Shown here: one piece after another, positions 3,266 through 64,000 of the stretch
How positions within the stretch are numbered: the stretch's first letter is position 1
Layout: the number at the start of each line of letters is the position of its first letter
Position numbers and translations under genes: made by a program
Notes under the pieces: model-generated
What the model was told of the DNA's origin: nothing
Database searches by the model: none
What the model saw: the letters and a program-made list of their open reading frames with translations, nothing else
Source of the DNA: Cafeteria roenbergensis
Lineage: Eukaryota > Sar > Bigyra > Bicosoecida > Cafeteriaceae
Length of the DNA stretch: 64,000 nucleotides
NCBI GenBank assembly: GCA_008330645.1
Contig: VLTN01000034.1
Coordinates: 310,001-374,000 of the forward strand
Reading direction: 5' to 3'

Positions 3266-6200
3266 ATGGACCCGCCGCCACAGGCTGCCTGGGGCGCGCC
3301 CCTGGCCTCGCTGCGAGTCGCTTCGTCCTTTTCTGCGGACGAGAGCTTCCACGCCGCCTCATGGTGGGCAACTCGCCTGGGCATCGCGCTGGACACATGC
3401 TGTTTGGACTACGGGTCTGCAGCGGGAGTGGCGCCGACCCCCGCGCGGGCCTTCTTCCCAGGGCTGTTCCCAGCCTCAGCCGCGCAAGCGCCCCTTCCAT
3501 CGCACGCAACCGCCGGAACACAGACTAGCGCGCAACAGGGGGCGGGCAGTGATGTGTCGCATCGCCCCGCGCCGCCGGGTGGTCCAGTGTCGGGGCCGTC
3601 AGTGGCCCTGGAGGGCGAGGCCGCTGCGGCGCTGCGGCGCGAAGCCAGCTCCCTCGCAGCCGGCCCCGCCGTCGCCCTCTGGCTCTGCCGGGTATGCGAC
3701 CTGGAGCCAGCGGAGGCGGCGGTCGGGTCTGACGGGCCTGGGCTGCGTGTGGTGCACCCCGAGACGCGGGCGCGTCGGCGGCGGCGGCTATCGCAGCAGC
3801 AGCCCTCGGGGGCGCCGCCAGAGCGGCCGGACGCAGCAGCGCCAGCTGCGCCGCCGCCGCCGCCGCCACAGGCAGCCCGTGGCGCAGGCTCAGGTGCCAG
3901 TGCTACTGATTCGGCTGCAGCACCAGCGGCGGCGTCAGCTGCCGGCGGAGCTGCCAGCCGCTGCCCGGAGAGCCGGTGGACCGCCGAGGCACGCCGTGTC
4001 GGCGAAATTATTGGCCGGACAATGGTTCGGCATGCAGAGCTGAGCGAGTCGGAAGTGAGAAGCAGCTCTACCGGCTTGGTCCCGGGCGCACCACTGGTCG
4101 TGGTGCTGGCGCCGCCTCCGGCACTGCCCCGGGATGCAGAGGCTAGCGCCCGTAGGCCCTCCAGCCCATGCAAGCGTGAGTCTGACCCCGGTACTGACCC
4201 CGGGTCTGACTCCCTCGCTGTCGCTGCGGAGACAGCTGCTGCCAGCTACTGGCTGGAGCACGCCGCTGCAGAGGCAGCCATCGCCGCGGCCGTTGCGGGG
4301 ACCCCGGCACACCTCTGTGGCTCTGCTGGAAGGCTCGTGCTTAAGCCGAGCACTGTGGCCGCCGGGTGGGAGGCAGAGCCGAGCGCGGAACTCGCAGGCG
4401 GAAACGGCCGGCGAGCCCAGTCACACCCCGGTCACGCTGGAGTCAGACCGCTGCCGGCTGCTGGGCCGCTGGGTTGGGAAGTGCGCAGGGCAGACGGTGG
4501 TGGCAAAACGTTTCGCCGGGTGTTCCTGATTGGGGCTGCCACTCTTGCTCGGTGGTGGGGCGGGCTCATGCCTCCGCAGCTCTGCCGAGAGTGGCATCAC
4601 GACCAGCTCAGCGTCGATCCGGCAGAGGCAGTGGGCGTCGCTCCGCCGTCGCCCAGCTCTGCCGTGGCCGGCACTCCAGCAGGCGGCGATGGACCTGGTG
4701 GCCTGGACCACCATCATCATCGTCCGTGCCTGCCATCCGACGGTTTCACGCCGGCGCTTGAACTGGCGGGTCATGCTCCCTTTTCGCGAGCAATGTCCGC
4801 GTCTCTCATTGGCCCTGCCATCCGCGTCGCTCACGCGTCGCTCCTGGCGTGCGCAGCGCTGAGCGACCCCACAGACGTTCCCGACCCGCTCACTGGAGGC
4901 GACGGATTCGCGACCGTTGCCGGGCGGCGTCTGCTGGAGCAGGCGGCCGCATCAGCCGACGGAACAGCGGTTTCGCCGCTTGCCGTGCGGGGATCAGCGC
5001 CACCCTCGCAAGCGACGCCAATTGCAGCAGCGACGGCTGCAGCAGCGACAGGGGTGGCGGCGGCGCCAGCGCCAGCAGCACTGGTACCAGAAGCGGCGAC
5101 GACGGGACAGAGCGACGCGGCGGGACAGAGCGACGCGGCAGAGCCAATGACTCGTTCGGCAGAGCTGTGTGGCATCGGGGGACTCGTAGCTGCGCTGGTG
5201 CCGGCAGAGCTCGGTTTCGCGTCGGCTGAGGGCAAGAAGGCTCTGAGTCTCGACTGCGACTGGACGCTGTGGGGTGGGGTGGCGTCGGAAGGATCTGGGA
5301 AGGATCGTGACGGTAGCTCTGCCACTTTGGCTGCAGGTGGTCCAGGACGCGCCGGGTCCAGCCCCGATGGTGGCTCTGACGTGCATGCGATTGGGGAGGG
5401 ACTGGTGATTGATGGCGGTTTCGCGTGGGTGCGTGCCGCTGCAGTGTGGATGCGCGACCGTCGCGGCTGGATCATCGGGCTCTGCAGCAGGAACACAGAG
5501 GCCGACGTCCGCGCAGCGGTTTCGCGTCTGGCTGGAGCAGCGCCCCGGGCAGCGCGGCGGCGGCTTGCGGCGAAGACTGTGGGCGGCGGCGCTGGTGATG
5601 CTGGCACCGGTGGCGTGTCTGGCGCTGCTGCTGGGGCTGGCGCCGGTGGCGTGTCTGGCGCTGCTGCTGGGGCTGGCGCCGGTGGCGTGTCTGACGCTGC
5701 TGCTGGGGCTGGCGCCGGTGGCGTGTCTGACGCTGCTGCTGGGGCTGGCGCCGGTGGCGTGTCTGGCGCTGCTGCTGGGGCTGGCGCCGGCGCCACGCTG
5801 CCCGTCGCTGCGCGTGCTGGTGGCATGCCGGAGCCTGCGCTGATGCCGTCACAGCGGCCGTCACAGCGGCCGTCGACGTCGTCTTCGTTTGCGGCGCTGT
5901 GGGATGGCGGTTCAGGGGTGTCGTTCCTGGCGGCTGGTCACGGCGCAAAGTCGGCTCTGCTCACCAAGGCAGCAGCGTCTCTCAACATTGCTCGGGCGTC
6001 GCTCGTTCACTTCGACGACAACCCTGTGGAAGTGGCAGAAATCTCCGCATCCGCACCAGACATCACTTCACTTCGCGTGCCTGCCGACCCCGGAGCGACC
6101 ACGTCCGGGCTTGGCCCCGCTGGCTCCGCGCGCAAGTACCGCGCTGCAGTCGCCCACTTCTGGGCGATCGACGAGCCTCTGCCCGTGAGAGTGATGGTCC

Positions 6201-9200
6201 ATCCCATCGCGGATACGGACGGCTTCGCAAACGACCCCTCAGGCCAGGACTTGCCGAGGCCCCGGGCTGCGCCCTCGGCCAGCGGTGATCCACGCGGCGG
6301 TGACGGCCGTACGGCGGAGGACCGCGGCAGAGCCGACCTGTACGCGGCAGAGCGACGTCGAGTCGAGGCAGCGCGCGAAGCGACCGCAGCTGTGCTCTCA
6401 GCAGACGAGGCGGAGGCCGAGGCGGAGGCGGGGCTCTTGGCAAGCGGTGCTGGCGCCGGAGTGCCAGCTGATGGAAGCATGACTGGCCAAAGACCCTCAG
6501 GCGATGGGGTCGTGGCTGAGGCCGCAAGCGCTGCGGCAACCCAACCATCTCGGCAGCGGCGTCGCGTCCGCAGCGCTGCCGCTGCGGGTAGCAGAGCCAC
6601 TTCAAGTAGAGCCCGTGTTCTGGCATCGTTCTTGGCCTCGCTGCGACTGGCCATGGAGCCAGTGGCGAGCGACGCGGCATCGCTCCTCAACGACGCCGAG
6701 TCACTGGCGCGAGTCGCGCAATTGACGCAACGGACAAATCAAGTCAACGCGTGCAAGGACCCAACCCCGCTGGCAGAGCTGGTGCTGGCTCTGCGCATCG
6801 CGGCCAAGCGTGACGCCGCTCGAGCCGCCATGAAGGCACTGCCGCCCGCAGCGGCTGGTGGGCTGGCCAGTGCTCCGGTGACGGGCCAGCCTGCAGCAAG
6901 CCAAGCCTCCCTCAGCGTGGCAGCTGCCGCTGCTGCTGCACCCTTCTGTGGCGGGGTTCGCGTCACCGCAGCCCGTGTAACGGACAGGTTCGGGTGCTAC
7001 GGCCTCGTCACGGTGGCGGCATGCGAAGACTTGGCAATCAGACTCGATTCAACTTCAACTTCAACTTCAACTCCCGCTGCTGTCCCTTGCGATACTGCTG
7101 CAAGCGCTTGTATCGATGCTGGTGCTGGTGCTACTGGTGCTGCTGGTGCTGATGCCGCAGCTGGCGTGGCTGCCAAAGCCTCGACCTCTGCAAAGGTGCC
7201 AGTGCCGGCATCTGCCGCTGCCTTCGCACTGAGGTCCTGGCAGTCAGCTGACGGCTTGCCGCTTGCTGTACCGGCCTCCAAGGCAGCTCTGCCTGGCTAC
7301 GGTTTCGCCGGCAAGCCTCCACCGGCAAATGTCGGTCCAGCGTCTTTGGCTGGAGACGGAGTGTCACTGGCGGTGCCTGCAGCTGGTGCAGCCGGTTCGG
7401 TTGCCGTTGCAGGCCGGGTTGCCGTTGGGAGGGCCCTGCTTTGCTCTTGTCGCATCCTGCAGCGGGGAGCGGAGCAAGCCTGCGTCTCTCACCTGGGGTC
7501 GCTCGCGCGGCAGGCAGTGGAGTCCCTTGCAGATAAGGAGTCTCTCACCGGGGCCCCACCAACACCACAAGCCTCTGCCGCTTGTGGAGTTGCTCCGTCT
7601 GCCCGTGTGGTCCGGGGTGACTGGCTGGCGATGCCGTGGGTGCCCTCGGACCGGAACGAGCCTGCAAGGGCGTTGCTGTTCGGGCCCCGGGCGACAGTTC
7701 CTTCCGGCACATCCAACGACAGTGGTTCGTTGCTGAGCGATTCCGGTGTTGCACCAGGTGATGACGACGCTGTCATCGGCGAAACAGAATGCCCGATGCC
7801 CGGGTCGCTATTTGCGCCGCTGCAGCCCCTTGTGCCTGCACCAGTGGATTCACTGCGCGGAGTTTGCGAAACGGCCGCATCAACTCCGCACTATGAGTGG
7901 TCGGAGTCACTCGTCAATCGCCTTGAGCAGGAAGCGCAAGGCGGGGCGCTCAGCGATACAGCTCTGCTCGCCGACGTCGGACCGACATCGCGAGCAGAAG
8001 GCGTCGCGGAAGCGGATTGGGCTCTGCCCAACCGGGCTCTACCGAGGTGCCTCCGCCTCGCTAGGGTCGCGTCAGCCGCCTCGCTGTTGAGACTGTGTCG
8101 GTCTGCGGCCAGCGAAGTGTGGGGCCGCATCGAGACGGTGCGCCACGCCGCGGGGCTCGCTCGCCGCGAAGGCCTCACTGGCTCTGCCGACGGTGACTGG
8201 CAAGTGATGGCGCTGAGACTCGCAGGGATGGACGGGTGGTGCGGCGCCGCGCTCCCGCGGGCGCGGCTGGAGGGGGACTGGGGGTTTCCGGCGTGGGTGG
8301 TCGACGCTGTTCGTCGGCGAAAGGTTTGTCCGAAGCTGGCTGCCGGCAAGGGGTGTGCGCTGCTGATGCGAGGGAAGAGTGGCCACGTCGCGTCCGTCGA
8401 CCACTCTCCATCGCTATGCCCTGCGCTTCTAGAGGCCGCGGTTTCGCGTGGTGACTTTGCCCAGACCCGTAAGCAGCAGCGGCAGTCGCTAGCCAGCGCG
8501 GGGCGCGGAGGCGCCGGCACAGGCGACCACCGTGAACAGTCGCCAGACGCTGTGGGTGCTGCTGCCGGCGACGGCGACGGAGCTGTTCGGGGGATGACGT
8601 CACCTGCCACTCTTCCTCCCGGCTGGGCCCGGGCCATCGTGACGGTTGCCTCGCTGACGAGGGCTGCGGCTGGAAAGGATGCCCCGACGGTTGCCGATGC
8701 CGAGTCTGACTCTCGTGGCGGCATCGGCAGGCTGCGGCGTGGCCTGTGGGGGTCACTGGTGCACTGCGGGGCCGAGTCACTCATCCGTCACGATGGAGCC
8801 GGTTCGGCCATTCATTGGCCATTTGCAGCCCCGGAATCCACCCGCCATCCGAACGCGGCGGAAACGGCTTTCGTGGCGTTTCTGGCGAGCGACCCCGCGT
8901 CGCTCAACGCAGCGCTGTCTGGAGCCTCTCTGGCCTCGGCCGCAGCAAGCGTCGCCGCAGCCGCGGCAGCCGCGTCAGCTGCGTCAGCTGACGGCACCAA
9001 GTCTGCCAAGGCCGGAGGCGAAGCCATGTCCGAGCTCGTAGCCAACAGCGCCAAGAACGGCGGCCTGACCGCGTTCCTGGGAAGCGCTGGCACGGCCGGG
9101 GGCCCCGGCGGGACAACCGGCTCTGCCGGGCCGAGGGGCTGGATGACCGACGCAGAGGCAAGGCGGGCGGCCTTGCACGCCGCGAAACCGCCGCCCGGGC

Positions 9201-10881: not shown

Positions 10882-13800
10882 ATGCAAAGCTCGGGCAGCA
10901 GCAAGGCCGCTCGGGGTGCCTCGTCGCTCGTCGCAGCGCTGCGTGAGCGCGCCGCGTCCGGCTGGCTTGGCCTTGCCGAACTGGCTGCAATCCTAGCCAC
11001 GGCGGGCGATGAGCTGGCTGACGCGTGGCTGGACACCAGCGGCGCGTCCCCCCAGCCTCTGCGACCGGCCTCTGGGTCAGTCTTCGTCATTGCGGCTGGG
11101 AACGTCGGATCGGTTGCCGGCACTGCAACAGGCTCGGCTGCCGGCGCTGACAGCGCCCCGTGGGAGGCAGACGGTCACTGCTACGCCGCCAGTGGCACAG
11201 CCACTGTTGTTGTCGACCCAAGGGCGGCTCTCCGCAGCGCCGGCGAAGGACCCGCCGCTGCCTCAGGCGCAGCGACCGGCGCCGCCCCGGCTCCACCGCT
11301 GTGCCCCCCATCTGGCCCGCAAGCCACTGCCTCGCTCGCGTCGCTGCTACCCCCGGCCTCGCTGGAGGCCGCCCTGAAAGCAGCCCTTCAGCGGTCGGAC
11401 CAGCTCTGCCTGGAGGGCTCTGCCGGTCCCGCCTCAAGGGCAGAGCCGGTATCCGCGTCGCTGGTCTTGCACCCCAGTGCCTGCCCGACCGCGCCAGAGC
11501 TCGTTGCAGCCCCGCCGGCGGTACGATTCGCCGACGCGGAGGCGGTGGAGCTGGGGCTGGCGACGCAGAGCGACGCGGCGGACGGTCGCTCAGCGTTGCT
11601 CACGATGCACATGCACTGGTCGACGTCCTTTCCTGGCTCTACCGACGGTAGCGAGGGAGGCGGCAGCGGCAGCGGCAGCGGCAGCGTGTTGCAGGTACTG
11701 CAGAGGCGAGCGGCGTGCCTGGCTCTACCGGGGCTCTGCCGTCCGGCAGAGCCGCTGGATGCGGTGCAGCACATGCGCCTGACAGGGGCTCACGGTGCCG
11801 GTGCCGGTGCCGGTGCTGGGGCCATCAGTGACAGCGGTGTCGACTCGGTGGGTGTGCACCCTGCTGACGCCGGCCGTGTGGTCTGGGTGGTTCAGTACCA
11901 CCTAGTGGACGTTGACCGCCCGGTCGACCTATTCAGAGACCCGACGGCATCCTGCCCGCGGTTCAACGCCGCTGACGGCTCGCCGTGGCCCAGTGGTCTC
12001 CGCCGCGCCTCAGGGCAACCCGCCCTCACCGGAAGCTCGGCCACCGCTGCTGCTGCTGCTGCTGCTGCTGCGGCTGAACCCCCTGACGAGAGCGGCGGCG
12101 GCGGCGGCGGCGGCAGCAGCAGCAGCAGCAGCGGCAGCAACAGCAACAGCAGCAGCGGCAGCAGGATGGATCCCCGTTCGCATCGCCCTGCGGCTCGAGC
12201 GACGCCTCTTGCCGCGGCACCGGCTTCCGCAGAGGCTGGCTCGGCCGCTGGCAGGCAGCCCTCCTCAGCCCAAGGCGGCCACATCGGTCAGATGCGGCAG
12301 AGCCATGCCACTTCGGCGGCAGAGCTGCTTGAGGCCATCGCTGCCCTCGAGAAGGAGTCCGCTCCCGTGCCGGCAGAGCCGCGCCCAGCGGTGACCACTG
12401 TTAGTCGGGAGCAGAGCCCCGGGAGCAGTGGAGCAGATGCAAGTCACCACGGGTCAGATCTGCATCAGGAGTCAATCGCCATGCAATCAGAACTTGTGCC
12501 TTGGCAAGGAGCCGTGAGCGTCGCAGGCAACGGCCTCGCTGGCCCATCCCGCGAAACCGCTGGAAGTGACCAGCCATCTCCTCGGCGACGGCCGCCTCCA
12601 GCAACCCCTGAGCGACGCGCGCCCCACCCCGACTCGGGGCACGTGTCTGAGCAGTGGCGTGCGGACGCCGCCTGGCCCTCAGAGCGCGGCAGAGCCGCGC
12701 CCGGGTGGTCTCCGGCCGCAGGGCTGCACGGCGGGCCCGACGAGGAAGAGTGGCAGGCTGAAGGCACGCTTCCAACGCTGCCCCCGCAACAATCAACTGC
12801 AACTGCAACTGAAACTGAAACCTTCAATGCAACGGTATTGACTCCGCCCCGTCCCCGCCGTCAGAATCCGCTGGAGGATGGCCCACCGGCTTGGCGACTG
12901 GACGGTGATGTTGAGCGCCTGTCACCCCCATCACCGCCCCATCACCAGTCTCCTGATGACTGGGCCACGACCCTGAGGAGGGATGAGACGCATCTTGCAG
13001 CTGCAACCAGCTCACGGTCGCTTCAGCCCTGGGCGTCTGACCCACGATTGGCCGGTGATGGGTGGCCCATGGACCCCAAGCGAGACATGTCTCGCACCCA
13101 TGCAGCGCTGCCATCCAGCTCTGCCAGCAGGCATGCTGCCCTGTCATCGACAGCGCCTCACGCGCTGCAGCGACGATCTGAGCGACTTTTGGACAGTGGA
13201 GCGGAGCGACGATCTGAGCGACGAGCGGAGCGACGAGCGGAGCGACCCGGCTCGCGCAACGGTCACAGCGAGATGTCTCTTGCGCTCTCAGGCACGAGAG
13301 CCGAGGCGGGCCACTCCCCGGCGGTGGCGCGAACGCCGTCAGCTGAGAACGTACTCCGGGAGTCACGCGCGGAGGCGGCGGCGGCGGAGGAGGCGGAGGA
13401 GGCAGCATCGCGGCTGGCGGCTGAGGCCATGGGCAGAGCCACGTCGTACCGGTTCGGTGTGCGGATCGACCGTCTCAAGGCGGAGGCGGAGTCACTTCGC
13501 GGCAGCTTGAAACGCGCGCGACGCGCTCATGATGCTGTGGTGACCCGAGCCGATGCGCTTGCCGCCGACAACGACGAGCTTCGGAAACGCCTAGGATCCG
13601 CTCTGGAAGCAGTGAGAGCCGAAACCGCTCGAAGTAGCTCTGCTGAAGCAGAGCTGGAACAAGTTCGCGCGTCGTCAGCCACTCTGCAGAGCCGGCTGGA
13701 GGGCCAGGCGGCGGATGCGAAGGCCGAAATTCGGGCCTTGAACAAGCAGCTGGCCGATGGCGCGGCGGCCCACGCAACGGAGACTGACCGACTGAAGCGG

Positions 13801-28430: not shown

Positions 28431-28461
<31 letters not shown>

Positions 28462-29486: not shown

Positions 29487-29519
<33 letters not shown>

Positions 29520-40329: not shown

Positions 40330-40371
<42 letters not shown>

Positions 40372-52408: not shown

Positions 52409-53329
52409 ATGGGTGAGCCCGGCCCCGCCATGTTGCTGCGTCCGCGAGCCACAGCAGCAGGCCGGGCCGTCTTGGAGCCGCGGGAGTCGGCGCTGCCCCG
52501 GCGCGCGGTATGCCGCTGCGCTTGCAACCAGCGCGCCCGGGGCGGTTCTCGCGCCCCGGGAGCCCCTGTCGCGCCCACCCGCGGCCAGATCCGCTAGCCA
52601 ACTGTGGCATGCGTGGGATGGCGCGCCCGGAGGGTCCGGGAGAGGGCGGAGCCCGGCCGCCCGAGCCTGTCGAGCGGTGGAGTCATGCGCAAAGATCGGG
52701 CCAGATGCAACCTTGCTTCGGCCAGGGCTTGCCGGGCTCGCGACCGTCCTCCCCGGGCCCAAGGCACGTGATATTTCGCGCCGGTGCCCGCTCGAGGCAG
52801 GCAGTTGCCGTGGCGTGCCCCGCTTGCGCTCCCCGTGGCCGCGCTTGGGGCCGCGCTGGCAGACTCGACGGGCACTCGCCGCCGCCCACCGTTGCCTCCT
52901 CTCGTTTTCCGTCCAAGCCGCCCATTCCACCGCGCAGCATCCACCGGCAAAGGCAGCCCCGCTGATCCGGCCAAGGTCGACGGCATTCTGGGAGCCCTCT
53001 CCAACTTCGAGGCCAAGACGGACAGTGCCGAGAAGGGCAAGGCTGCCGCAGAGGTCTGCAAGAAGGTCGCTGAGCTCGTTTCGGACGGCAAGGTCGACGA
53101 AAAGCTGCTCAAGGCGGTGCAGGACAAGGACGGGACCAAGTCTGAAGAGTTCTTCATCAACAGACTGACCAAGGCAATGAACGCCGTCGGCTCCGACGCG
53201 CGCAAGGACAAGGACTTCGACAAGGCCGACACCGTCCTCTCCGCCAGCCGCGCCAAGCACGCGGTCCTGGGCTGCGGCCCGGAGCCCGACGCGTTCATGG
53301 GAACGCGCATGTGCAGCTGGGTCTGCTGA
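52409..53329 (+). CDS. Small Lys/Ala-rich protein, two exons, 4-nt first coding exon
   Basis: Model: exon 1 coding 52409-52412 (ACC ATGG, then donor GTGAGC), intron 52413-52937 (525 bp, pyrimidine-rich before CGCGCAG), exon 2 52938-53329; 131 residues starting MASTGKGSPADPAKVDG. The Lys/Asp/Ala-rich body (EKGKAAAEVCKKVAELV, KVDEKLLKAVQDKDGTK) looks like a compact alpha-helical domain with normal codon use, unlike its low-complexity neighbours, and it ends CSWVC. The frame is open upstream into the intron, but that stretch has no ATG and an Arg/Pro-rich composition. I do not recognise the family. Small size, high charge and four Cys suggest a soluble protein, and no signal peptide is predicted in this model. 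The reading frame is convincing; the start depends on the splice model. Confidence 0.6.
52413..52937 (+). other. Phase-1 intron immediately after ATGG
   Basis: The donor ATGG/GTGAGCC and the acceptor CCACCGCGCAG/CATCC restore Ala as residue 2. Nothing was recognised inside. Confidence 0.55.
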
Positions 53330-53638
53330 GGCGGCCAGCCTGCCCACCACCCTGGGGCCTGGCGAGGCGCCTTGGAGCAAGCGCAAGCGGCGGCACGGCG
53401 TTGCGCGTTTGCTCCCGCCGCGGCTTGGTTGTGGCGCGGCAGTGAGATCGGCTTGCGTTCTGCACAATCGCCTCTCGGCGTTGACTCCAGCCTTGCACCC
53501 CACGCACCCTGCGTAAACCCGCCGCCGCGAGCGCGTTCGCCGGCAACAATGTTCCTGGCGTTTGCATGCCAACGTCCTCTGCCAGGGCGCAGGGCAGCAA
53601 CTGCAACGAACCGGAGCACTCTTGCCGCAAGCTCGCGA
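53330..53638. other. Intergenic / 5'UTR before the ankyrin gene
   Basis: 309 bp. The ankyrin exon 1 frame is open through most of it with an earlier ATG at 53549 (MFLAFACQRP), so a longer N-terminus is possible. No other feature was found. Confidence 0.4.
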
Positions 53639-55303
53639 ATGATCCTCACCGGGAGGGGACGCCCCGTGCCTGGCATGATTGAGCGCGGCACCTTCGCTGA
53701 GACCACGACGCATCTGCTGTCCAGGCTCTGGGACAAGAATTGCCTGGTCGACGTGAGGCCGGCTTGACACGTGGAGCGCGTGCTGAAACAACGGGACCTG
53801 GCGGCGGTCAGCAGCAGCCAGGGGGGCGAAAGCCCTGAGCAATGGACACGATCCGGTCCGGCAGCTCCGCGCACGGGCCGCGCGGTGCGGCGCGGCGTGG
53901 CGTGGCGTGGAGCAGAATCACGAGCGAGCAAACAGCAGCAGTCCCAATCGCCAGCGACCGTGTGCACCGCACTTCGCAGGGGCACGACACGCTGCTTGGT
54001 CTAGCTGCCAGGCACAACGAGTTGGCAATCGTGGCGAAGCTGTGCAGTCTGGACGGCATCTCCCTGGAAGCGACCGACCTGGTGAGCCAGGCGCGATCGG
54101 CTTGCCAGGAGTGGCGATCATGTGCTGAGGCAATCGCCGTGTTGTTCCATCCAGCTCGCGTCGGTGTTGCTGCCCAAGGGCGACGCAGGAAGGAAACACG
54201 CCGCTGGCCATCGCCGCGAGCCGGGGGCATACTGAAGTCGTGAAGTACCTCATTGGCCAGGGAGCTAACCGCCGTGCGGTGAATGATGTGAGCTGCCAGG
54301 ATCTCGAAGCTAATTTTTTTGCTTCGCGTGCCGGCCAAGGCCACGCATCGCTCAGGGGCGATGCTGCCGCTATGGAACGCAGGCAGGCTACCAGCCCATC
54401 CACCTGGCCGCTCGGCATCACGTGGAAACTGCTCTCGCCATGATCATTGACCGTGAAGACACGACAGCGGTTGTGGCCAAGCCCGCAACCCTCAGCATTC
54501 TCTGGCGGCAATGCGCGCAGCAGGCCCGCCCAGTCTCTGCCTTCGTGCCCTGGCTTCTCGCCCATTGCGGTCTTGCCGGACCGATCAGTTTGGGGCATAC
54601 GCAAGGGCAATTGCCTGACATGGGGCCTGATCGGGAAGATGCTGACGAAGCTGCGCGGACCATTGCCCCCTCTCCCACTCACCTGCTTGGCGATGCCGAG
54701 GGCGGTGAAATCAAAGAAGAGGCACCTGCCTCGGACGCGGAGCCCGCCGCCGCCGCTGCCATGGAGCTCCTCGACTGCGACGCGGCGCCGCTCGGCGGCA
54801 ACTCCGAGGCGGTGGCACCTGCCCCGGACGCGGAGCCCGCCGCCGCCGCTGCCGTGGAGCTCCTCGACTGCGACGCGGCGCCGCTCGGCGGCAACTCCGA
54901 GGCGGTGGCACCTGCCCCGGACGCGGAGCCCGCCGCCGCCGCTGCCATGGAGCTCCTCGACTGCGACGCGGCGCCGCTCGGCGGCGACTCCGAGGCGGTG
55001 GCGCCTGCCCCGGACGCGGAGCCCGCCGCCGCCGCTGCCATGGAGCTCCTCGACTGCGACGCGGCGCCGCTCGGCGGCGACTCCGAGGCGGTGGCACCTG
55101 CCCCAGACGCGGAGCCCGCCGCCGCCGCTGCCATGGAGCTCCTCGACTGCGACGCGGCGCCGCTCGGCGGCGACTCCGAGGCGGTGGCGCCTGCCCCAGA
55201 CGCCGAGCCCGCCGTCACTGCTGCTGAGGAAGATTGCTCGAAGACTGAGCTGGACGAAGAGGCTCGTCGCTTGGCTGACTTTCTGCGCGATTTGGCTGAG
55301 TGA
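53639..55303 (+). CDS. Ankyrin-repeat protein with acidic 31-residue C-terminal repeats, four exons
   Basis: Model: exons 53639-53752, 53980-54081, 54189-54287 and 54383-55303, all junctions phase 0, donors GTGAG; about 411 residues. The ankyrin repeats are GHDTLLGLAARHNELAIVAKL (exon 2), EGNTPLAIAASRGHTEVVKYL then GQGANRRAVND (exon 3) and AGYQPIHLAARHHVETALAMI (exon 4). Exons 2 and 3 are 102 and 99 bp, each one repeat long. After a Trp/Leu/His-rich segment the protein ends in an acidic Ala/Pro/Asp/Glu-rich array of five 31-residue repeats (MELLDCDAAPLGGDSEAVAP) and a short charged helix. Ankyrin repeats mediate protein binding; the partner is unknown. Start choice is uncertain (53549, 53639 or 53675). 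The three introns (227, 107 and 95 bp) are inferred from splice consensus and repeat continuity. Confidence 0.75.
54722..55214 (+). repeat. 93-bp in-frame tandem repeat, about five copies
   Basis: The unit encodes 31 residues around EPAAAAAMELLDCDAAPLGG. Copies differ by single bases (Asn/Asp in GGN/GGD, Met/Val), showing recent tandem duplication in the terminal exon of the ankyrin gene. Confidence 0.93.
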
Positions 55304-56071
55304 TTGCCTCCGTCCGCCTTACCAGACCTTCATCGCTTCAATTCGACTGCATTGCTGACCTCGCTGAAGCCCCACTGGGAATAGCACTCGTTGTTGGCCT
55401 GCAGGTGCTTTCGGTTTCTCTCTCTTTGGCGCTGCGGCAACTTGTTCGGCTGGCCAAGGTTTTCGCCGCTCGGCACAGTCTTGCTCTTCCGCACACATAT
55501 GCAACAAACTTTTCTTTGAACTTGCTGACGTGTTCAAAGAGGTTAAGCTTCGCGCCTTTGAAGAATGGCAACGTCCGACAAAGACCTGACAGCAAACTCG
55601 TTCGTCTTGTGCAGAATCGTCACAATCCTTGTTGTTTTCTCCCTGCTCCGCGGACGATGGATGCACGCTCATCACTTCTTCGTGAATTCCGAGCGCGCAC
55701 CTGCGGACGCGAGCATTCGAGTGTCCCTTGCCACTGCTTGGATGAGTCGACTTCTCGGGAGTTAATTGCTACTATCGAGACCCAACGAAGGTTCGTGGCG
55801 ACCACTCACATTGGACCAACGATGTTCACCAGTTGTCGCGAGCAACTGACGCACTGCAGCTTCCCAGCCTCCAGTTGAGGATGCGCAGTTGCGGAGAGTC
55901 GATGCTAAAGGCTCGATGGTGGAGTGCTGCTTCGAGCACGCGGCAGCTGTTGTTTGTGTGCTGAGTGACGGCATCATGCCTCCATACGATTCTGCTCGAG
56001 CCACTTTCAGAGCACAGCAGCTGCAAGCGTCAAGCAAAGCAACCACGCCGCAAATGCACAACGAGAGCGCC
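55304..56071. other. Convergent intergenic region, A/T-richer
   Basis: 768 bp between the ankyrin and calpain-like stop codons, distinctly less G+C-rich than the coding DNA (many TTG, CAAAG and TTTCT patches). It should hold two 3'UTRs. Because the calpain-like frame ends at GCGTGAGG, which also reads as a splice donor, a further calpain-like exon here cannot be ruled out, but none was recognised. Confidence 0.45.
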
Positions 56072-59000
56072 TCACGCAGGCGCGTCCGCAGCCGCAGGCG
56101 TGTCCGCCGTCTTGGCGTCGGCGGCCGCAGGCGTGTCCGCCGTCTTGGCGTCGGCGGCCGCAGGCGTGTCCGCCGTCTTGGCGTCGGCGGCCGCAGGCGT
56201 GTCCGCCGTCTTGGCGTCGGCGGCCGCAGGCGTGTCCGCCGTCTTGGCGTCGGCGGCCGCAGGCGTGTCCGCCGTCTTGGCATCCGCCGCCGCAGGCGTG
56301 TCCGCCGTCTTGGCGTCCGCGGCCGCAGGCGTGTCCGCAGTCTTGGCATCCGCGGCCGCAGGCGTGTCCGCCGTCTTGGCGTCGGCGGCCGCAGGCGTGT
56401 CTGCCGCCTTGGCATCCGCGGGGGCAGGCGTGTCCGCCGTCTTGGCGTCCGCGGCCGCAGGCGTGTCTGCCGCCTTGGCATCCGCGGGGGCAGGCGTGTC
56501 CGCCGTCTTGGCGTCGGCGGCCGCAGGCGTGTCTGCCGCCTTGGCATCCGCGGCCGCAGGCGTGTCTGCCGTCTTGGCGTCCGCGGCCGCAGGCGTGTCC
56601 GCCGCCTCGTCGTCCGCCTGGCCGGCACGCTGCGCTGCCCTGGCCCTCGCGCGCTGCATCGTCAGCCCGTCAGCAAAAATGCCTCCAAGCCCTCCGGGGG
56701 CCTTGCTCGTTCCGGACCCAATCTGCTTCAGAGTCCGAGCCTTCTCGGCCGTGTCGTGCACCTCGCCACGCGCCATCCGCACCTCCAGCGGCACCTCGAA
56801 GCAGCTCTCGCCGGTTTCGCCGTTGTACCAATACGACCGGCCGGTGACCGGGTCAGTCTGCTCCACCCACACCGTCGACGCCTCAACTGCCGTGGCAGCT
56901 CTCTCAACCTCGGCCTCGGCAGCCGCCTCCTCCATCGCGGAGAGCGCCGCCTCCGCCGCGGCCTCCTCCTCCTGCCGTGCCGCCAGCTCGACTGGGTCCA
57001 CCCCGACCATGGCCCGCTTGGCGAGGGCCACCGCGCCGCTGACCCACCGCACGAGGCGCGTCACCGGACTGCCTGAGGCGTACTCATGCGTGACCGACTC
57101 GTCGCGCGTGGGCGGCCACAGGCCCTGCAGCTCTACCGGGCAGTTGGAGCGGAGGGAGAGCGTGAAGGGGCCCTCCATACCGCGCTGGTAGGCGGCCACC
57201 AGCACAGTGTACGCCCCTGGCGGCAGCCGGGCGTAGCACCGCACCTCCCGCCGCCGCTGGGGTCTGCCCGAGGAGGCCACGACGTTGGCCGCTGTGAGGG
57301 TGTACGTGCGCTCAGCCCGCTTGGGCGCCGCGCCGCCGGCCCCGGCCCCGTCCCCGCCCAGCCCCGCCGTGACCTGCAGAGCCTGTTCCTCCTCCCACGC
57401 CGCCTCCTCGGCCTCCTCCTTCGCGATGCGGGCCCGATCCTCGGCGTCGCGCCGCAGACGTTTCAGCTCCTTCTCCTTCTTGCGGATACGCCGGCGGATC
57501 TCGCGCGGTTCCGGCACGCCGGAGCGCCCCTCGCGGGCGTACTCGGCGCGAAGCTCCGCCTCCACCTCGTTGTATAGCTGCCCGGCCTCTGTGCCCCCCG
57601 CCTCGGCGATGGCTTCGCGCTGCAGCCGCTCCCTGTAGGCCTCCTCGTCCTCCTCCTCGTCAGCGCGGCGCCGGCCCTTGTCCTCCGCCGCGCCCGCCGC
57701 AGCCATCACCAGCCGCACCGCCCCCCGGGCCTGCTGCTCCCTCTCGATACGCTTGCGCCGCTGCCGGTCGTGGATCTCGCTCTGGGATGACCCGGTCTGG
57801 GCAACCACAAACACGCCCACTGGGTGCGGCGTGGTCCGCGTGGTCACTCCCGGCAGAGCCTGCGTGAGCGTGATGGCAATGTCCGTTGGGCGGTCCAGCA
57901 CCAGCGAGAATTGCGGGTTGTCTGCCAGCCGGCAGTGGGGGTTGTGCCGCGATGGGAGCCCGGCGGCCGTGGGGCCCTTCCAGAAGCCTGCGAGGAGGTT
58001 AGGTCAGGGTTTAGAGGAGCGGACAGCGAGGCAGAGGTGGCGTGGGCGTGACGGGGGCGGGGGGGGGGGGTGGAGGGGGCGAGAGTGGGTGGGAGGCCCA
58101 CGCACACTCGCCGCGGCAGCAGGCGGGGCACGGTCGCAGGCCCGCGGCCGCAGGCGGGGCACGGTCGCAGGCCCGCGGCAGCAGGCGGGGCACGGTCGCA
58201 GGCCCGCGGCCCGCAGGCGGGGCACGGTCGCAGGCCCGCGGCCGCACCGCTCCGGCGTGCCTGCTGCTGTGCGGATGGGGCGAGGGCTTGCGCGGGGCGT
58301 GCCAGGAGTGACCGCAGGGCTGCTCCCCACGAGGCGGCGAGCGAGAGGCAACGGCTGTGCCGGGCGATCTCACCAGTGACCGTCTCAGGGAACCAGCGCT
58401 GAGGGTCGAACCAGCGGCAGAGGTATAGGGACCTGAACGCGAAGACGAAATCGTCCACCGACATCCAGAAGGTACCGTCGTCACTGTCATCGACCACTCC
58501 CAGCTTGTGCCGCAGCCGGCCCGTCCACAGGGGCGAGTTGTCCGACCAGTCGCCTTGCCACTCCCCGTGGTCGCCGGGCGGGTTGCGCAGCTTGATGAGG
58601 CAGTGGCCGTCGGCCTCCACCACCTGATACACGGTGTACACGGCCCCAAACACCAGGCCCGAGTCAAGAAGCTGCCGGTCCGACGCCGACCGCGAAACCG
58701 TTCCGGCTCCCATCAGGAAGCCGTTGGCAGACCACTGCTTGAGCTGCGCCCACAGGCGCAGCTTGGCGGCCCCGGTGCGGTTCTCGGACAGGAACACCTC
58801 CTCCGCGTCAGCGCCCTGCGATCAGAGGCGTTGCGGAGGGCGGGGGCAGAGGCGTTGCGGAGGGCGGGGGCGGCGCGCGGCGGGTTGGGAGCAACGCAAC
58901 ATGGACACGACGGCAGCACTGGCGCGCTGCGCGTTGCACGGCAAGGCGCTGCAATCTGTCTCACTGTGAGGTCCGTGAGCGCGTGTTGGACGAACCCAGT

Positions 59001-62000
59001 CTCCAGCGCGGCGTATGATCCGTGGTATTTGGCATAAGCCTTTTCCAGAATTGGAACCCAAATCTCGGACATCTCGCTGGCGTGAGCGAAAGCCACACCC
59101 CGGCCGCGACGCACGACGGCCAGAGTGTCGGCGTCCATCTCCGAGAGCTTGGGGCCGACGCGCGACGCCCCGCCGCCTGCCCGGCGGCCGCCACCGCCCT
59201 CTGCCGCCTCCTCCTCGTCCTCGTCCTCGTCGTCCTCGTTGTCCTCGTCATCGATCCCCGCCGTGCCGTCTGCGTCGACGTCGTACACCACCGGGAAGTA
59301 GTCGTCCACCACCACCGTCTCCCACTGGGCGTTCTTCCAGAAACGCACGGCGTACATGCCGGTCTCAGTGGTCTGGTCCGTCACGAACAGGTTTGCCACG
59401 AGAGCGTCGACGTCGCCGTCGTCCACGCCCCCCGACGCCGCCACAATGCTCACTGCCGAGAGGAACCAGTTGTCCTGCAGAAGCCCCGTGAACACGTCGT
59501 CCGGGTCGGTTCCGTCCTTGAACAGGCCGGCGCCCGGGTTGAGCGCCAACGACGACCGCCAGCCGATAATGTCCCCGGCGCGGCTTGCGGGCCCTATCGA
59601 GGAGGCGGAGTGAGGGAACTCCGAGTCCCTGAACTGCCACTCCCGCCCGTAGTCGCCTGGAACGCAACCCTTGTGGCCACGCTCGATCTCGTGAACGGTT
59701 TCGTTGTCGTTTTCGTCTGCCTCTGCCTCTGGCGCCGCGACCGCGGCAGCGCCGTCCCCGACGATGCCCGCCCGCCGACGGGCCGCCCGGCGCTGCGCAA
59801 AGTCCTGGGCGCGGAGTTTCGCCATGCGGAGCTCGCGGGGGCGGAGCGACTGCAAGTGTGCCTCCGCACGCGCAGTCGCCTCCTTGTCCTCCCGCCGCTG
59901 CGCCTCCAGCCGGGCGCGCTGCTCCGCAGCAAAGCGCTCGCGCTGGGCCCGGAAGCGCTGCCGCTGCTCGGGCGTCAGCGTTTGAAGCCACGTGGCCACC
60001 AGTGCCACGTCAAGAGACGCAAACGACGCGGAGCTAAACACGGATTCAGGCGGCTCGACCCCAGCGGCGGAAAGTTCCGCCGCATACTCCCGGAGGAACC
60101 TACGGAAGAGCACCGCCTCCGCCTGCAGCCGTGCCTCCGCCGCCACGAGCACCAGCAGCGAGAAGTGAGCGAAGAGCCGGCTCTCCTCAAAGTACTCGCT
60201 GCGATCGCGCAAAGGGTCCTCAGCATCGCACGCACGGGGCGGTCAAATACACATCAAAACAAAACAAACCAGAAAGCCAGGATGGCCAGCAAGGCGGGGC
60301 GGGCGGGGAAGGCTGGGGCGGTGGCAATCACGAACGCAGAACAACAACAACAGCTATTCACACGAGTGGCACAGCCACTCTGGTTGCTGGCCAGCGCCAC
60401 CCGGGCTGCAGGGCCTTGCTCGACCGCGCCACCCGGGCGGCAGGGCTGCAGGGCCTTGCTCAAAGCCTGGGGTATCGCGTTGCAAATCGTTTGATTTTCA
60501 ATCCGCGCCCCAGCAAACGGCACTCGCGTATTTGGTCCCAACTCACCGGTTCAGAGTTGCGACGGCGTCCATCTCGTCGCTCAGGGATCCGGCGAAGTCA
60601 AGGCTGCGGTGCCAGCCGCCGCGCCTCACCGCCGAGGGCGCGACCACCACGCTGTCGAACAGCCCCCGGAGGGCGGGCCCCGCGTCGGGCGGGGCGGCGT
60701 CAGCTGATTCCAGCGTGTCGTCCGCCTGGGCCCAGCCTACGACGGCCATTCCAGAGTCCCGACGCGAGGCCGCCGCGGGCGTTCCTCCCTTGGCGTCCAG
60801 CGCAGACGCACCCCCGGCAGCGCCAGCCCCTGTCATAGCGGGCGCGGGCAATCCTTTCGCCGCCGCACGCTGTCTCTCCGCCTGCTGCGCAAGCGTCATC
60901 TGCCCCGTCGCAACCGCCCTCCGAACAGCCACCTCCTCCTCGGCGCGGCGGTCGACGGCGCGTTCGGCCCGGGCTAGCGCCTCGAAAATTCCCTGAGACA
61001 TGTCTCGCTCCTTCTGCTCCGCCTTGAGCTCCTGCAGAGCCGTGAGAGACTCGCCCTCCTGCGCCGCAAGAGCAGCCTCGAAGGCGTCCACAGGCGCACC
61101 GGCAGAGCCGTCCCTGGCAGAGCCGGCTCCGGCCAGCCCAGCGCCAGATCCGCCTGCCTGCAGAGCCAGCGTGTCGGAGATGTCCTTCCCGTCCTTCTCC
61201 GCCTCGATGGCCGCTACGGCCTTCTTCTCCTCCTCCCGGCGTCTCTCACGAGCGATGCGCTCAGCCTCTTGCCGGCGCCGGACCGCCGCCTGTCGCCTGC
61301 GGGCTCTGACCTCCGCGGCGGCGTCCCCAGAGCACCCTGCTGCAGCGGCGAACACCACGCTGGCCATGGCTTGGCAGAGCAGACCCCTGCAGAGCCGCTT
61401 GAAAAAGAGCCGGCAGAAACCCCTAAGGCAGAGCCACGCAACCGGGCCATCACCGGACAGAGCCGAATCCCCCAGCGCCTCTCTCCATGTCATGTGTCCG
61501 TCCTGACGGCGGGCAGGCACGAAGACCGACATCTCCGAGCGACGCCGGGGGGGACGCAGGCCCCGCGCAACCTTGCCGCAGAGGCCGCAGCCGGGCCCCC
61601 CGATCAGCCCGCAGCAGCAGCCATCGGGCCCGCCGCAGCCGTCGGGGCTGCTGCCGCAGCAACCGCCCTTGGCAGGCTTGCCGCCCTTCGCCGACAGCTC
61701 TGCAGCCCGGCTGCGCTTCTCCACGAGCTGCGAAACCGCCCTGTCGGCGTCGTCTTCGCCGCCGCTCGAAGTAGACGCACGGGCGAGCAGAGCGCCGCCA
61801 AGTATCTCGCCGTCCGAGGCGGCGGCGGCCGCGGCGGCAGAGCCGGCGCCGCGACCTGCACGGCGCCGTGCCACGCCGTCGCCCGACATAGCGCCGCTCT
61901 CCAGGGGCTTGATCCGGGCGCCGCCGCCGCCGCCGCCGCCGCGGCCGCCTCTGCCCCCGCCCCCTGCCTCCTCGTCCTCGTACTCGTCGCCGTCGTGCCT

Positions 62001-64000
62001 GTGGTCGGGCGGCTGCGTGGTGGGGTCGATCCTGTTCGGATACGGGAGTACCATGGCACGCGTCGCCAGCCAGCGGTAGAGCGACCACCCGCGCCGACGT
62101 CGCTCTGCAGGAGTGATGGTCCTGGCGTCCCGCGACAAGATACCATCCCGGTCCGTGGAGGCGGCTCCCACGGCGCCCGACCATGCCGCGGCCGCCGCAG
62201 TGGATGAGTCCGCGTAAAAGGCGCCGCCGCCGCCTCCGCCGCCGCCGCCGCCGCCGCCAGCGCCCCCCGCCTGAAGCGACACGCCCGAGCGCTCCGACCA
62301 CCCAAAGGCGCGTGTCAGCTCTGCCACGCGGCCTTCGCGCAGGGCAGAGCCCCGCTGCCCCCCCCGCTTCAGGGGCGGAAGGATTGTCGGTTTCCCGACG
62401 TCGCTCGACATCTCCGCGAGGGCGGGCGGGGTCGGACCCCACTCCCCGCCTGCCGCGTCGGGCTCCCAGGGCCAAGCGAAGCGCTGTTCCCAGCGCCGGC
62501 GGAGCCACTGCTCGGCAGCCTGCTTGGCTGAGTCACGGCGCATCAGCGCCGCTTGCTCTGCCGCCTTGCGTCGCTTGGACCGTTCTTCCGGGGATAGCCG
62601 CCCGGCCGCCCCGGCACCCCCCCCTCCGCCGCCGCCGCCGAAGGCGCCCCCTGCCAACCGGACCGCCTCCTCCTCCGCCTCTGCCTCGTCCCGCTGCAAG
62701 AACTCCTCGCAGTGGGCGTCGAGCGCCCGGCGTCTCTCAAAGAACGTCGCTCGGGCGCGGTCCCCTGCCAGCCGCAAGACGTCCTCATCCAGGAACTTGG
62801 ACGATCGACCAAGGCGCAGCGCCGCGTCGCCGGCCACCGTCGCCGCGGCCACCGCGCCCAGCACCACCACCGTGCAGGCAATTCCCACGCCTGCGTCCAG
62901 AGGGTCGGCCAGCATCGTGGCGACCAGACCCCACAGCAGGGCCAGCCCCCACGCCGCCACCGCGTCGGCCGCCGCCGCGCTGAACGGAATGAGCTCGCTG
63001 GTGGCTGGGTCCAGCGCGTACGCCGGGAAGAGGAAGGGCGAGACCATCACTCTGGCACCGGGCGGCAGAGCCGACAGAGCCGACAGAGCCTTGGCGACGA
63101 GGAGGAGGACGAGGAATCCAAAGGCGATGCTGATTGCGAAGAAGATGTCCACGTCTGCGAGCAGCCCCACCACGACGCTCAGACAGGCGCAGGCCACGAG
63201 CAGCGACCCGGCGTAGGTGGGGTGGGGCTCCGGGAGGAAGAAGCCGTTGCGAACCCATACCCGCGCAAGGTAGGTTGCGTAGGCTGCAAAGACGACCAGG
63301 ACTAGCAGGATGGCGCCGGCCGTGTAGCTGACCCAGCCGAACACCGCCAGAACGGCGACAAGCCACAGCGGCAAGGCCACTGCGAGGCCGTAGCGCGTCA
63401 CTGGCGGCATGAACCACTGGTTGTCGGGCCACGCCGCGAACGCGCAGACAGTGAGCAGGACAAGCGGCCACCCGAAGCCGCCGAGCGCCAGGTACACCGC
63501 GGCCGGGGCGGAGGCGTCGCCGTTGAGAGGGCCGAGGAACAGCCCCAGGAACAGCCCCACGTGGATCAGCGCCCCCCCCGCCAGGTACACCACGACGTCG
63601 GCAGAGAGCCGGTAGCGCTGGAACAGCTTGACGAGCGCCATGCCGCTGAGCAGCAGGCCGAGCGGCAGCGCGTACAGCACGTGCCCGAGCCAGACGGACT
63701 CCACGGTGGCCAGCACCAGCCCGCCGTAGAGGCACAGCAGGACCACCAGGCCCAGCAGCGACGCCAGCGTGGCGTAGTCGGTGTGCGTCAGGAACCCCGC
63801 CACGAACGCGTCCCACGCCCCCACCGCCTTGGGATCGCTCATCTTGGCAAGCCACTTGGCGTAGCGCTGCTTCAGGGAGAGCGCCCCTGCCTGCTTGCGC
63901 CGATGCGCCTCCGCCTCCTCCGGGGAGCGGTTTCGCGCGGCCTCCTCCTCGGCGGCGGCAGCAGCGGCCGCCGCCGCATCCTCCTCGTCCTCCTCCTCTC
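56072..64000 (-). CDS. Multi-pass membrane calpain-like protein (phytocalpain-like plan), catalytically degenerate; 5' end off window
   Basis: Model (minus): exon a beyond 64000-60547, b 60198-58965, c 58815-58374, d 57987-56072; introns GT-AG with GTGAG donors. Exon a has about 11-12 transmembrane helices (63770-62830), then a long charged, Gly- and Cys-rich linker. Exon b has a coiled coil and the calpain IIa subdomain: the active-site block reads LLQDNWFLSA, so the catalytic Cys is Asn (AAC at 59471-59469). Exon c has IIb: GAVYTV replaces the usual GHAYSV, so the catalytic His is Ala (58644-58642), while Asn of LRNPPGD is kept. Exon d carries the C2-like domain (GAYTVLVAAYQRGMEGPFTL), a WW domain (VWVEQTDPVTGRSYWYN, second Trp now Phe) and 16 hendecapeptide repeats. 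Membrane plus calpain plus C2L recalls plant DEK1 and protist relatives. Proteolysis is unlikely; a scaffold or sensor role is inferred. Confidence 0.82.
56082..56611 (-). repeat. 33-bp in-frame repeat, about 16 copies (ADTPAAADAKT)
   Basis: Eleven-residue Ala/Asp/Thr/Pro/Lys units form the C-terminal tail of the calpain-like protein, with variants ADTPAPADAKA. The unit length equals that of the short unit in the giant coiled-coil gene and shares ADAK, but Pro in each unit argues against a helix. Confidence 0.93.
57988..58373 (-). other. 386-bp intron of the calpain-like gene
   Basis: The donor ACTG/GTGAGATC (phase 1) and the acceptor CCTCCTCGCAG/GCTTCTGG join IIb to the C2-like domain, restoring GFWKGPTAAG. 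It contains the 31-bp repeat listed separately. Confidence 0.7.
58119..58243. repeat. 31-bp intronic tandem repeat, four copies
   Basis: Units of GCAGGCGGGGCACGGTCGCA followed by GGCCCGCGG, with 1-2-base variation, lie within the intron between the calpain IIb and C2-like exons. Confidence 0.85.
58822..58872. repeat. 23-24-bp duplication in an intron
   Basis: Two adjacent copies of AGAGGCGTTGCGGAGGGCGG(GGGC) lie directly before the acceptor (transcript sense) of calpain-like exon c, within the 149-bp intron 58816-58964. Confidence 0.8.
60199..60546 (-). other. 348-bp intron of the calpain-like gene
   Basis: The donor AACCG/GTGAGT and the acceptor GATCGCAG/CGAGTAC (phase 2) restore Arg and continue LNREYFEESR. 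A duplicated GGGCTGCAGGGCCTTGCTC-like segment lies at about 60409-60465, and an A-rich acaaaacaaaac stretch at about 60254-60270. Confidence 0.7.

What the first reader, a model, noticed from the sequence alone, without database searches (positions are those of the whole stretch)
3681..63070. GGCAGAGCC / GGCTCTGCC is a dispersed DNA-level word, used in every reading phase
The 9-mer and its near forms recur on both strands in nearly all genes, in a noncoding tandem repeat and in intergenic DNA. Within the single FkbH-like gene it appears as gg-ctc-tgc-c (3681), ggc-tct-gcc (8180, 9119), g-gct-ctg-cc (8020), g-gca-gag-cc (4372) and ggc-aga-gcc (6326), encoding LC, GSA, ALP, AEP and GRA. A codon or peptide preference cannot produce the same 9-mer in all phases and orientations, so something acts on DNA or RNA. 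Candidates: binding site of an abundant protein, modification target, replication or chromatin mark, small-RNA target, or footprint of a mini-element.
Basis: partly seen in the sequence, partly recalled or inferred. Interest (0 to 1): 0.8.

Follow-up and report, generated by a model that had tools for sequence, protein, structure and literature searches.

The report
Dispersed DNA word lexicon in Cafeteria
A genome that appears to be that of a marine flagellate carries at least six exact 9-11-letter DNA words scattered on both strands, mostly within gene-sized open reading frames and regardless of reading phase, and gathered in certain chromosome regions, which suggests that DNA-binding or DNA-repair proteins read them.

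Summary
GGCAGAGCC occurs 62 times in the window; all six cited sites, phases and peptides are right. Codon shuffling of 11 window ORFs gives 5.0 where 60 are seen, in all six phase/strand classes. Genome-wide it has 10,998 copies, against 994 for the reversed word and 1,118 for GGCACAGCC. Flanks are random: the unit is an 11-mer, YGGCAGAGCCR. It is one of at least six such words (also CGCGAAACCGC, GTCAGCTGAC, GCGTCKCTCA, GGAAGGATC, CGATCGACCA; 5- to 21-fold over reversed controls). They co-cluster in chromosome patches not explained by GC, CpG, codon bias or protein disorder. The genome matches Cafeteria strain BVI in size, GC and a contig equal to its published N50. That something acts on double-stranded DNA is supported; exact intergenic copies are not (0 of 62). 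Peptide, mini-element, foreign-DNA and strand-specific RNA readings fit poorly. Best reading: recognition sites of DNA-binding proteins, kept by selection or by biased repair; I cannot separate these. Mechanism uncertain; interest high.

The parts
3681..3689 (-). word A (GGCAGAGCC), antisense phase 1, reads L-C in the 2987 ORF
4372..4380 (+). word A, phase 2, A-E-P
6326..6334 (+). word A, phase 0, G-R-A
8020..8028 (-). word A, A-L-P
8180..8188 (-). word A, G-S-A
9119..9127 (-). word A, G-S-A
11416..11447 (.). two copies of word A in opposite orientation (11416 -, 11439 +)
11732..11753 (.). two copies of word A in opposite orientation, starts 13 bp apart
30329..30354 (.). two copies of word A in opposite orientation, starts 17 bp apart
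32007..36908 (-). word-rich open frame (1634 codons): 9 copies of A, 17 of words B-F
38240..44299 (-). most word-rich of the window's long open frames (2020 codons): 17 copies of A, 28 of words B-F
43493..43525 (.). two copies of word A in opposite orientation
47212..47220 (+). word A in a weakly conserved C-terminal part of a GH31 enzyme
47414..47422 (+). word A in an ungapped, conserved aligned segment of the same GH31 enzyme (best read as substitution)
48437..48445 (+). word A inside an insert (about residues 670-725) of the GH31 enzyme absent from the solved homologues shown
49426..49434 (+). word A overlapping a turn where solved homologues have a 3-4-residue gap
61101..61124 (+). two direct copies of word A, starts 15 bp apart
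63064..63072 (+). word A followed by two GACAGAGCC copies (9-bp tandem), inside an open frame
41216..41223 (+). word B core CGAAACCG (one of 42 in the masked window; consensus CGCGAAACCGC)
41507..41528 (.). two copies of word C, GTCAGCTGAC (11 core copies TCAGCTGA in the window)
51359..51375 (+). two copies of word D core GTCKCTCA (45 in the window; consensus GCGTCKCTCA)
5287..5305 (+). two copies of word E core GGAAGGAT (13 in the window)
50575..60242 (.). word-poor stretch: one copy of A in about 10 kb

Best explanation
SHOWN: the genome carries at least six short, sharply bounded DNA words, spread through coding DNA on both strands and in several reading phases (all six phase/strand classes for words A and B), and concentrated together in certain genes and chromosome patches. 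INFERRED: each word is the recognition site of a sequence-specific DNA-binding protein (some sites are near-palindromic, as for dimers), and the proteins act together on the same patches (chromatin domain, gene-body or pairing/recombination role). Copies are gained largely by point substitution and kept where the protein sequence tolerates them. They are held either by weak selection for binding or by a drive that favours the recognised word when DNA is repaired or converted.
For: Exact core with steep loss on a central substitution: GGCACAGCC 1,118 vs GGCAGAGCC 10,998 genome-wide; tolerance only at some mostly outer positions, like a binding-site matrix. Symmetric half-specified ends YGGC-AGA-GCCR: 6,531 of 10,998 copies fit, about 25% would by chance. 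GTCAGCTGAC is a perfect palindrome. Sense/antisense 31/29 for A in 11 window ORFs. No larger repeat. Genome counts vs reversed control: B 1,291/101, C 428/43, D 1,815/363, E 925/44, F 435/28. On contigs C1-C5 6 of 6 pairs among B, C, E, F correlate beyond all 111 circular shifts; the control GGCACAGCC (C1-C2) neither clusters (variance/mean 0.79) nor follows the lexicon. Density is 3.8- to 8.6-fold higher in word-rich than in sampled DNA in 8 of 9 classes of codon bias and hydrophobicity (the ninth has 1 and 4 windows). Likely substitution origin at 47414.
Against: No binding protein, methylation or chromatin data. Words B-F are scarce in gaps between ORFs (4 copies in 9.8 kb vs 241 in 134.6 kb of ORF), unlike ordinary regulatory sites, though word A is enriched there (6 vs 0.4 expected). 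Outside the rich set only A (4.7-fold) and B (3.6-fold) are in clear excess in sampled ORFs; C-F are at 1.0- to 1.7-fold. No preferred spacing, orientation or convincing period. Without contig C5 the co-clustering is weaker (B-C r 0.16, 8 of 93 shifts reach it; B-E 1, B-F 2, E-F 3 of 93). Selection on thousands of sites inside codons is a heavy load, so drive without function fits about as well.
Confidence: 0.45

Rival explanations
1. Molecular drive without function: a repair, conversion or recombination machinery recognises the words and favours them, as proposed for bacterial uptake sequences and HIP1. Patches would be places of frequent conversion, and words would pile up wherever coding constraint is weak.
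For: In the rich set words are about twice as dense in low-hydrophobicity (disordered) protein segments as in hydrophobic ones (no clear trend in the sample). Patchiness is not explained by GC or CpG. One-off variants at some positions are enriched as well. Literature models of this kind exist.
Against: Six unrelated words would need six recognisers or one versatile one. Words B-F are scarce in ORF gaps, where constraint might be weak. No C5-type DNA methylase (PF00145) was found by a six-frame search that does find GH31, so the HIP-type cytosine-methylation model has no visible writer; other methylases were not tested, and intron-split or divergent enzymes could be missed.
Confidence: 0.3
2. 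Context-dependent mutation: the germline mutation spectrum has these words as its equilibrium, with no recogniser.
For: At least one copy is best read as substitution, and words are denser in weakly constrained protein segments of the rich set.
Against: Exact 9-11-mers at 5- to 21-fold over reversed controls, with one central change cutting the count tenfold, and patches that do not differ in GC, CpG, TpA or ApT (other dinucleotides differ slightly, |rho| up to 0.29). I know of no mutational process with an 11-bp context (recall).
Confidence: 0.1
3. Insertion of a mini-element or templated short insert carrying the word.
For: 48437 lies in an insert of about 55 residues and 49426 at a small indel. 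9 bp is three codons and phase 0 is favoured (37 of 60).
Against: For A, flanks are random from the second base outward. Phases 1 and 2 are also enriched. 47414 lies in an ungapped conserved alignment. Six words of 9-11 bp share no ends.
Confidence: 0.05
4. Codon, dipeptide or peptide preference (A-E, G-S-A and similar), or paralogous repeats.
For: Phase 0 is richest, giving residues G/R/A/S.
Against: Codon shuffle 60 vs 5.0 with the protein fixed; six of six phase/strand classes for the A and B cores; no paralogue of 19.5 kb of the window beyond simple repeats among the matches scored.
Confidence: 0.02
5. Word-rich patches are foreign DNA (virus, contaminant, introgression) with its own dialect.
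For: Strong patchiness. Outside the rich set words C-F are near expectation.
Against: Word density does not correlate with GC, CpG, TpA or ApT in 161 two-kb bins; word A is in excess outside patches too (42 in 171.8 kb of sampled ORF vs 8.9 expected); rich patches hold genes of eukaryotic type (GH31 with trefoil, RING, bromodomain). The published endogenous virophages of this host have 30-53% GC.
Confidence: 0.03

Closest known systems
DNA uptake sequences (Neisseria, Haemophilus)
   Same: Short exact 9-10-mers, in part within genes, accumulated by point mutation, mismatched forms also enriched (passages of PMC1939737; abstract and outline only of PMC2397512).
   Different: Bacterial, one dominant word per genome, tied to competence, and more frequent than expected in non-coding DNA. 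Here a eukaryote with at least six words, concentrated in patches, five of them scarce between ORFs.
HIP1 (GCGATCGC) of cyanobacteria
   Same: Hugely over-represented GC-rich word, about one per kb, without agreed function (abstract and the first of two parts of section 3.4 of PMC4390886).
   Different: One perfect palindrome linked to DNA methylases. Here several words, five of six not perfect palindromes, and no PF00145 methylase found.
C. elegans meiotic pairing-centre motifs (HIM-8/ZIM zinc fingers), from recall; search listing only
   Same: Short DNA words read by dedicated proteins, clustered in chromosome domains.
   Different: By recall, one protein and word per pairing centre, near chromosome ends, not known to be spread in exons; here six words share the same patches.
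Transcription-factor binding sites
   Same: Length, edge tolerance and near-palindromy. Word B contains TTTCGCG, E2F-like by recall.
   Different: Sit in coding bodies, five of six rare in gaps between ORFs, hundreds to thousands of copies.

Membership tests
DNA uptake sequence system | exact short word over-represented on both strands across the genome | tested here: met
   10,998 vs 994 reversed
DNA uptake sequence system | single dominant word (dialect) | tested here: not met
   at least six unrelated words, co-clustering
DNA uptake sequence system | preferential uptake by competent cells | not testable with these tools
   needs an experiment; a eukaryote
HIP-type iterated palindrome | perfect palindrome | tested here: not met
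   of the six only GTCAGCTGAC is a perfect palindrome; GGCAGAGCC has an AGA centre
HIP-type iterated palindrome | cognate cytosine DNA methylase in the genome | tested here: not met
   PF00145: 0 matches, while PF01055 gives 6 with the same tool; other methylase families not tested
transposable mini-element (MITE, introner) | a shared repeat body longer than the word, with conserved ends | tested here: not met
   for A flank information is near background from the second base out; for B, D and E within about three bases; C and F too few to say
promoter-proximal transcription-factor site | enriched in intergenic or promoter DNA | tested here: not met
   4 copies of B-F in 9.8 kb of gaps vs 241 in 134.6 kb of ORF; A 6 in gaps, 163 in ORFs
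sequence-specific DNA-binding protein site (general) | fixed core with position-specific tolerance, strand-symmetric | tested here: met
sequence-specific DNA-binding protein site (general) | a protein shown to bind | not testable with these tools
   no binding data

The most novel reading that the evidence does not exclude
A eukaryote writes a multi-word DNA code through its exons: at least six unrelated words, placed without regard to reading frame or strand, jointly mark certain genes and chromosome patches (a chromosomal address or self mark read by a set of DNA-binding proteins), so that coding sequence is bent to carry it.
Probability: 0.3. Interest if true: 0.93.

Novelty: new variant of a known kind. 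Interest (0 to 1): 0.76.

Why it matters
Over-represented genome words are known from bacteria (uptake sequences, HIP1). I found no report of a many-word version that crosses coding DNA of a eukaryote in several phases, in four limited searches of which I saw only the listings. It offers a direct test of whether sequence-specific binding, methylation or biased conversion can override coding sequence genome-wide. If the host is Cafeteria, as the assembly numbers say, it is the host of CroV and mavirus and has four sequenced strains, so gains and losses of words could be scored at once. It also warns that motif searches and codon analyses in such genomes must allow for DNA-level words.

Tried and rejected
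Chance: rejected by the order-3 null, codon shuffle and one-base control. Tandem repeats as the source: counts repeated after TRF masking, 58 of 62 copies remain. GC or CpG heterogeneity as cause of patches: no correlation with GC (rho 0.08), CpG, TpA or ApT; weak ones with some other dinucleotides, |rho| up to 0.29 (its density index counts word A twice when a pyrimidine precedes it). Protein disorder or low codon bias as the whole cause: tested within classes; about a 2-fold effect, seen only in the rich set. Helical or nucleosomal spacing: distance bins 0-1000 bp lie within 2.5 SD; the period scan gave scattered peaks (largest Rayleigh value 8.7 at 165 bp, distances not independent, no correction for multiple tests). 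GGAAGGATC also occurs near the 3' end of 18S rRNA (recall), but its right flanks differ, so taken as coincidence. A photosynthetic alga as host: no PF00504 match. A held-out test on four further 10-kb stretches of C1 could not be run. Literature for the word or its complement as a stand-alone word: 0 papers; longer sequences containing it would not have matched.

Limits: contig C5 was chosen because words B and C cluster there, so only A, D, E and F test it independently (E 16 of 27 and F 7 of 9 C5 copies in a quarter of the contig); the window was given because of A. 190 of 200 sampled kb were readable (L012 is all N). The C1 positions of A used are the first 100 listed, + strand, up to 1.22 Mb. 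ORFs are open frames, not gene models; the published genome has 1.67-1.89 introns per gene.
Full report
WHAT AND WHERE. The window is bases 310,001-374,000 of contig C34 of a 36,303,456-bp genome in 167 contigs. The published assembly of Cafeteria roenbergensis (called C. burkhardae in later papers) strain BVI has 170 contigs, 36,327,047 bp, 70.1% GC and contig N50 460,467 bp (passages of PMC6972860). Contig C26 of our genome is exactly 460,467 bp and the window is 70.1% GC. I take this as the source; it is an inference from matching numbers. No light-harvesting gene (PF00504) was found, as expected of a colourless flagellate. The same search tool does find GH31 there.

THE OBSERVATION. GGCAGAGCC occurs 33 times on + and 29 times on -. 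Aligning all 62 copies shows near-random sequence on both sides, apart from one half-specified base at each end: C/T before (50 of 62) and G/A after (53 of 62). So the unit is an 11-mer, YGGCAGAGCCR, an inverted repeat with an AGA centre. Genome-wide, 6,531 of 10,998 copies fit that extension; about a quarter would by chance.

MORE THAN CHANCE, AND NOT CODONS. With protein and codon usage fixed, 300 synonymous shuffles of 11 ORFs give 5.0 copies; 60 are seen. All six phase/strand classes are in excess: sense 16/6/9, antisense 21/3/5 for phases 0/1/2; expected values are 0.3-1.1 each. Phase 0 is favoured, giving G-R-A or G-S-A. Order-3 Markov simulation gives at most 10 copies in 50 runs against 58 in the masked window. 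Whole-genome counts: 10,998 against 994 for the reversed word and 1,118 for the one-base control GGCACAGCC. In the window, substitutions at positions 4-7 remove the excess (at most 2.3-fold left), while some changes elsewhere, such as GGCAGAGCT, TGCAGAGCC, GGCAGAGGC or GGTAGAGCC, keep much of it.

IT IS NOT ALONE. Scanning the tandem-repeat-masked window, and then the window plus 80 kb of contig C5, for over-represented words gave further words with the same behaviour: B CGCGAAACCGC, C GTCAGCTGAC, D GCGTCKCTCA, E GGAAGGATC, F CGATCGACCA. Phase use was tabulated for 8-mers in window ORFs: A and B cores occur in six of six phase/strand classes, the D cores in five, E cores in four or five, and the palindromic C core in two of three phases (10 and 1 copies); F was not among those tabulated. 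Flank information falls to near background within about three bases for A, B, D and E; C and F have only 22 and 17 copies and noisier flanks. Genome counts against the reversed pattern: B 1,291/101, C 428/43, D 1,815/363, E 925/44, F 435/28. The list is probably incomplete.

PATCHES. Twenty 10-kb stretches were sampled across the genome (one, L012, is withheld). The 19 readable ones have 0-7 copies of word A per 10 kb. The masked window has 10.6 per 10 kb, and three of the four C5 stretches fetched first have 21-24, the fourth 6. C5:660-890 kb was chosen because B and C cluster there (18 of 22 and 13 of 15 of their C5 copies in a quarter of the contig). Words not used for the choice follow: E 16 of 27 and F 7 of 9. 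On C1-C5, in 50-kb bins, six of six pairs among B, C, E and F are correlated beyond all 111 circular shifts. Without C5 the signal is weaker: of 93 shifts, 8 reach B-C, 1 B-E, 2 B-F and 3 E-F. On C1-C2 word D follows B+C+E+F (r 0.41, 0 of 51 shifts), while the control GGCACAGCC is not clustered (variance/mean 0.79) and does not follow the words (16 of 51 shifts reach its correlation). Word A on C1 (first 100 + strand places, to 1.22 Mb) follows B+C+D (r 0.43, 0 of 45 shifts reach it). Word density does not correlate with GC (rho 0.08), CpG, TpA or ApT in 161 two-kb bins; some other dinucleotides correlate weakly, |rho| up to 0.29.

OUTSIDE THE RICH SET. In 171.8 kb of sampled ORF only A (42 vs 8.9 expected) and B (19 vs 5.3) are in clear excess; C is 4 vs 2.3, D 18 vs 11.7, E 2 vs 2.1, F 2 vs 2.1. 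Their genome-wide excess therefore rests mainly on patches.

GENES. Within the rich set density differs between neighbouring genes (chi2/df 4.4 over 32 open frames of 400 codons or more; 2.1 over 44 in the sample) and rises with ORF length (rho 0.58; 0.22, p 0.15, in the sample). Among the richest are giant open frames dominated by Ala/Gly/Ser/Arg-rich sequence of disordered look without a Pfam match, for example window 38,240-44,299 with 17 copies of A and C5:745,461-755,201 with 23. Low hydrophobicity and codon bias do not explain it: in 8 of 9 classes of hydrophobicity and third-position GC the rich set has 3.8- to 8.6-fold more words than the sample; the ninth class has only 1 and 4 windows. 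Words B-F are scarce between ORFs (4 in 9.8 kb against 241 in 134.6 kb of ORF), but word A is enriched there too (6 against 0.4 expected).

HOW A WORD ARISES. The GH31/trefoil enzyme at 46,996-50,463 allows comparison with solved homologues. Of its four copies of word A, one (48437) is inside an insert of about 55 residues that the aligned homologues lack, one (49426) overlaps a 3-4-residue indel at a turn, one (47212) is in a weakly conserved C-terminal part, and one (47414, Ala-Leu-Pro) is in an ungapped conserved segment where homologues have Ile-Ile-Pro or Ile-Phe-Pro. The last is best read as substitution, not insertion. This is one gene.

INTERPRETATION. Strand symmetry, phase independence, random flanks, exact core with tolerant outer positions and near-palindromy point to recognition of double-stranded DNA by proteins. 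Co-clustering of six unrelated words points to a shared cause at the level of genes and chromosome patches. Whether copies are held by selection for binding or by drive through repair or conversion cannot be decided here. Passages of PMC1939737 argue that bacterial uptake sequences accumulate by point mutation and molecular drive in unconstrained parts of the genome. Section 3.4 of PMC4390886, first of two parts read, argues that HIP1 may be a by-product of methylation-directed repair. Both are good models for a drive. The second has no visible cytosine methylase here (PF00145). The scarcity of B-F between ORFs and the gene-to-gene differences are awkward for pure drive, hence my lean towards functional sites, at 0.45.

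NOVELTY. No paper in the held library contains the word or its complement as a stand-alone word. Searches for dispersed words in eukaryotes, for iterated palindromes, and for Cafeteria with motif or methylation terms gave no such report among the listings seen (12 of 32, 10 of 101 and 10 of 279 papers). Subscription journals and preprints are mostly not covered.

Noticed in passing
window 15885-18788: Nested 33-, 120- and 153-bp tandem repeats (unit GACGCCAAGGTGGCGGCTGCAGCCGAGCAGGCT) inside a 3,556-codon open frame; free of word A.
   Followed up: no
window 22078-23344: 39-bp tandem repeat, 32.5 copies at 93% matches.
   Followed up: no
window 46685-46877: 17-bp tandem repeat, 11.4 copies at 100% matches; 17 is not a multiple of three.
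   Followed up: no
window 54721-55214: 93-bp tandem repeat, 5.3 copies at 97% matches.
   Followed up: no
window 2987-9991: FkbH-like/HAD motifs (SLDCDWTLWGG ... VHFDDNP; recognised from recall) split by long disordered-looking inserts; Pfam finds nothing at E 0.001.
   Followed up: partly
window 46996-50463: Alpha-glucosidase (GH31) with two trefoil stretches and an Ala-rich insert of about 55 residues in the catalytic barrel; the genome search gave 5 other GH31 matches.
   Followed up: partly
genome G000: No C5 DNA methylase (PF00145) found by six-frame search, although GH31 is found by the same tool.
   Followed up: partly
L012 (C15:200001-210000): Stretch reads all N (withheld).
   Followed up: no
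G000:C12:13-227 kb: 15 of the 18 C12 copies of word F lie in the first 228 kb of the 653-kb contig: probably another word-rich patch.
   Followed up: no
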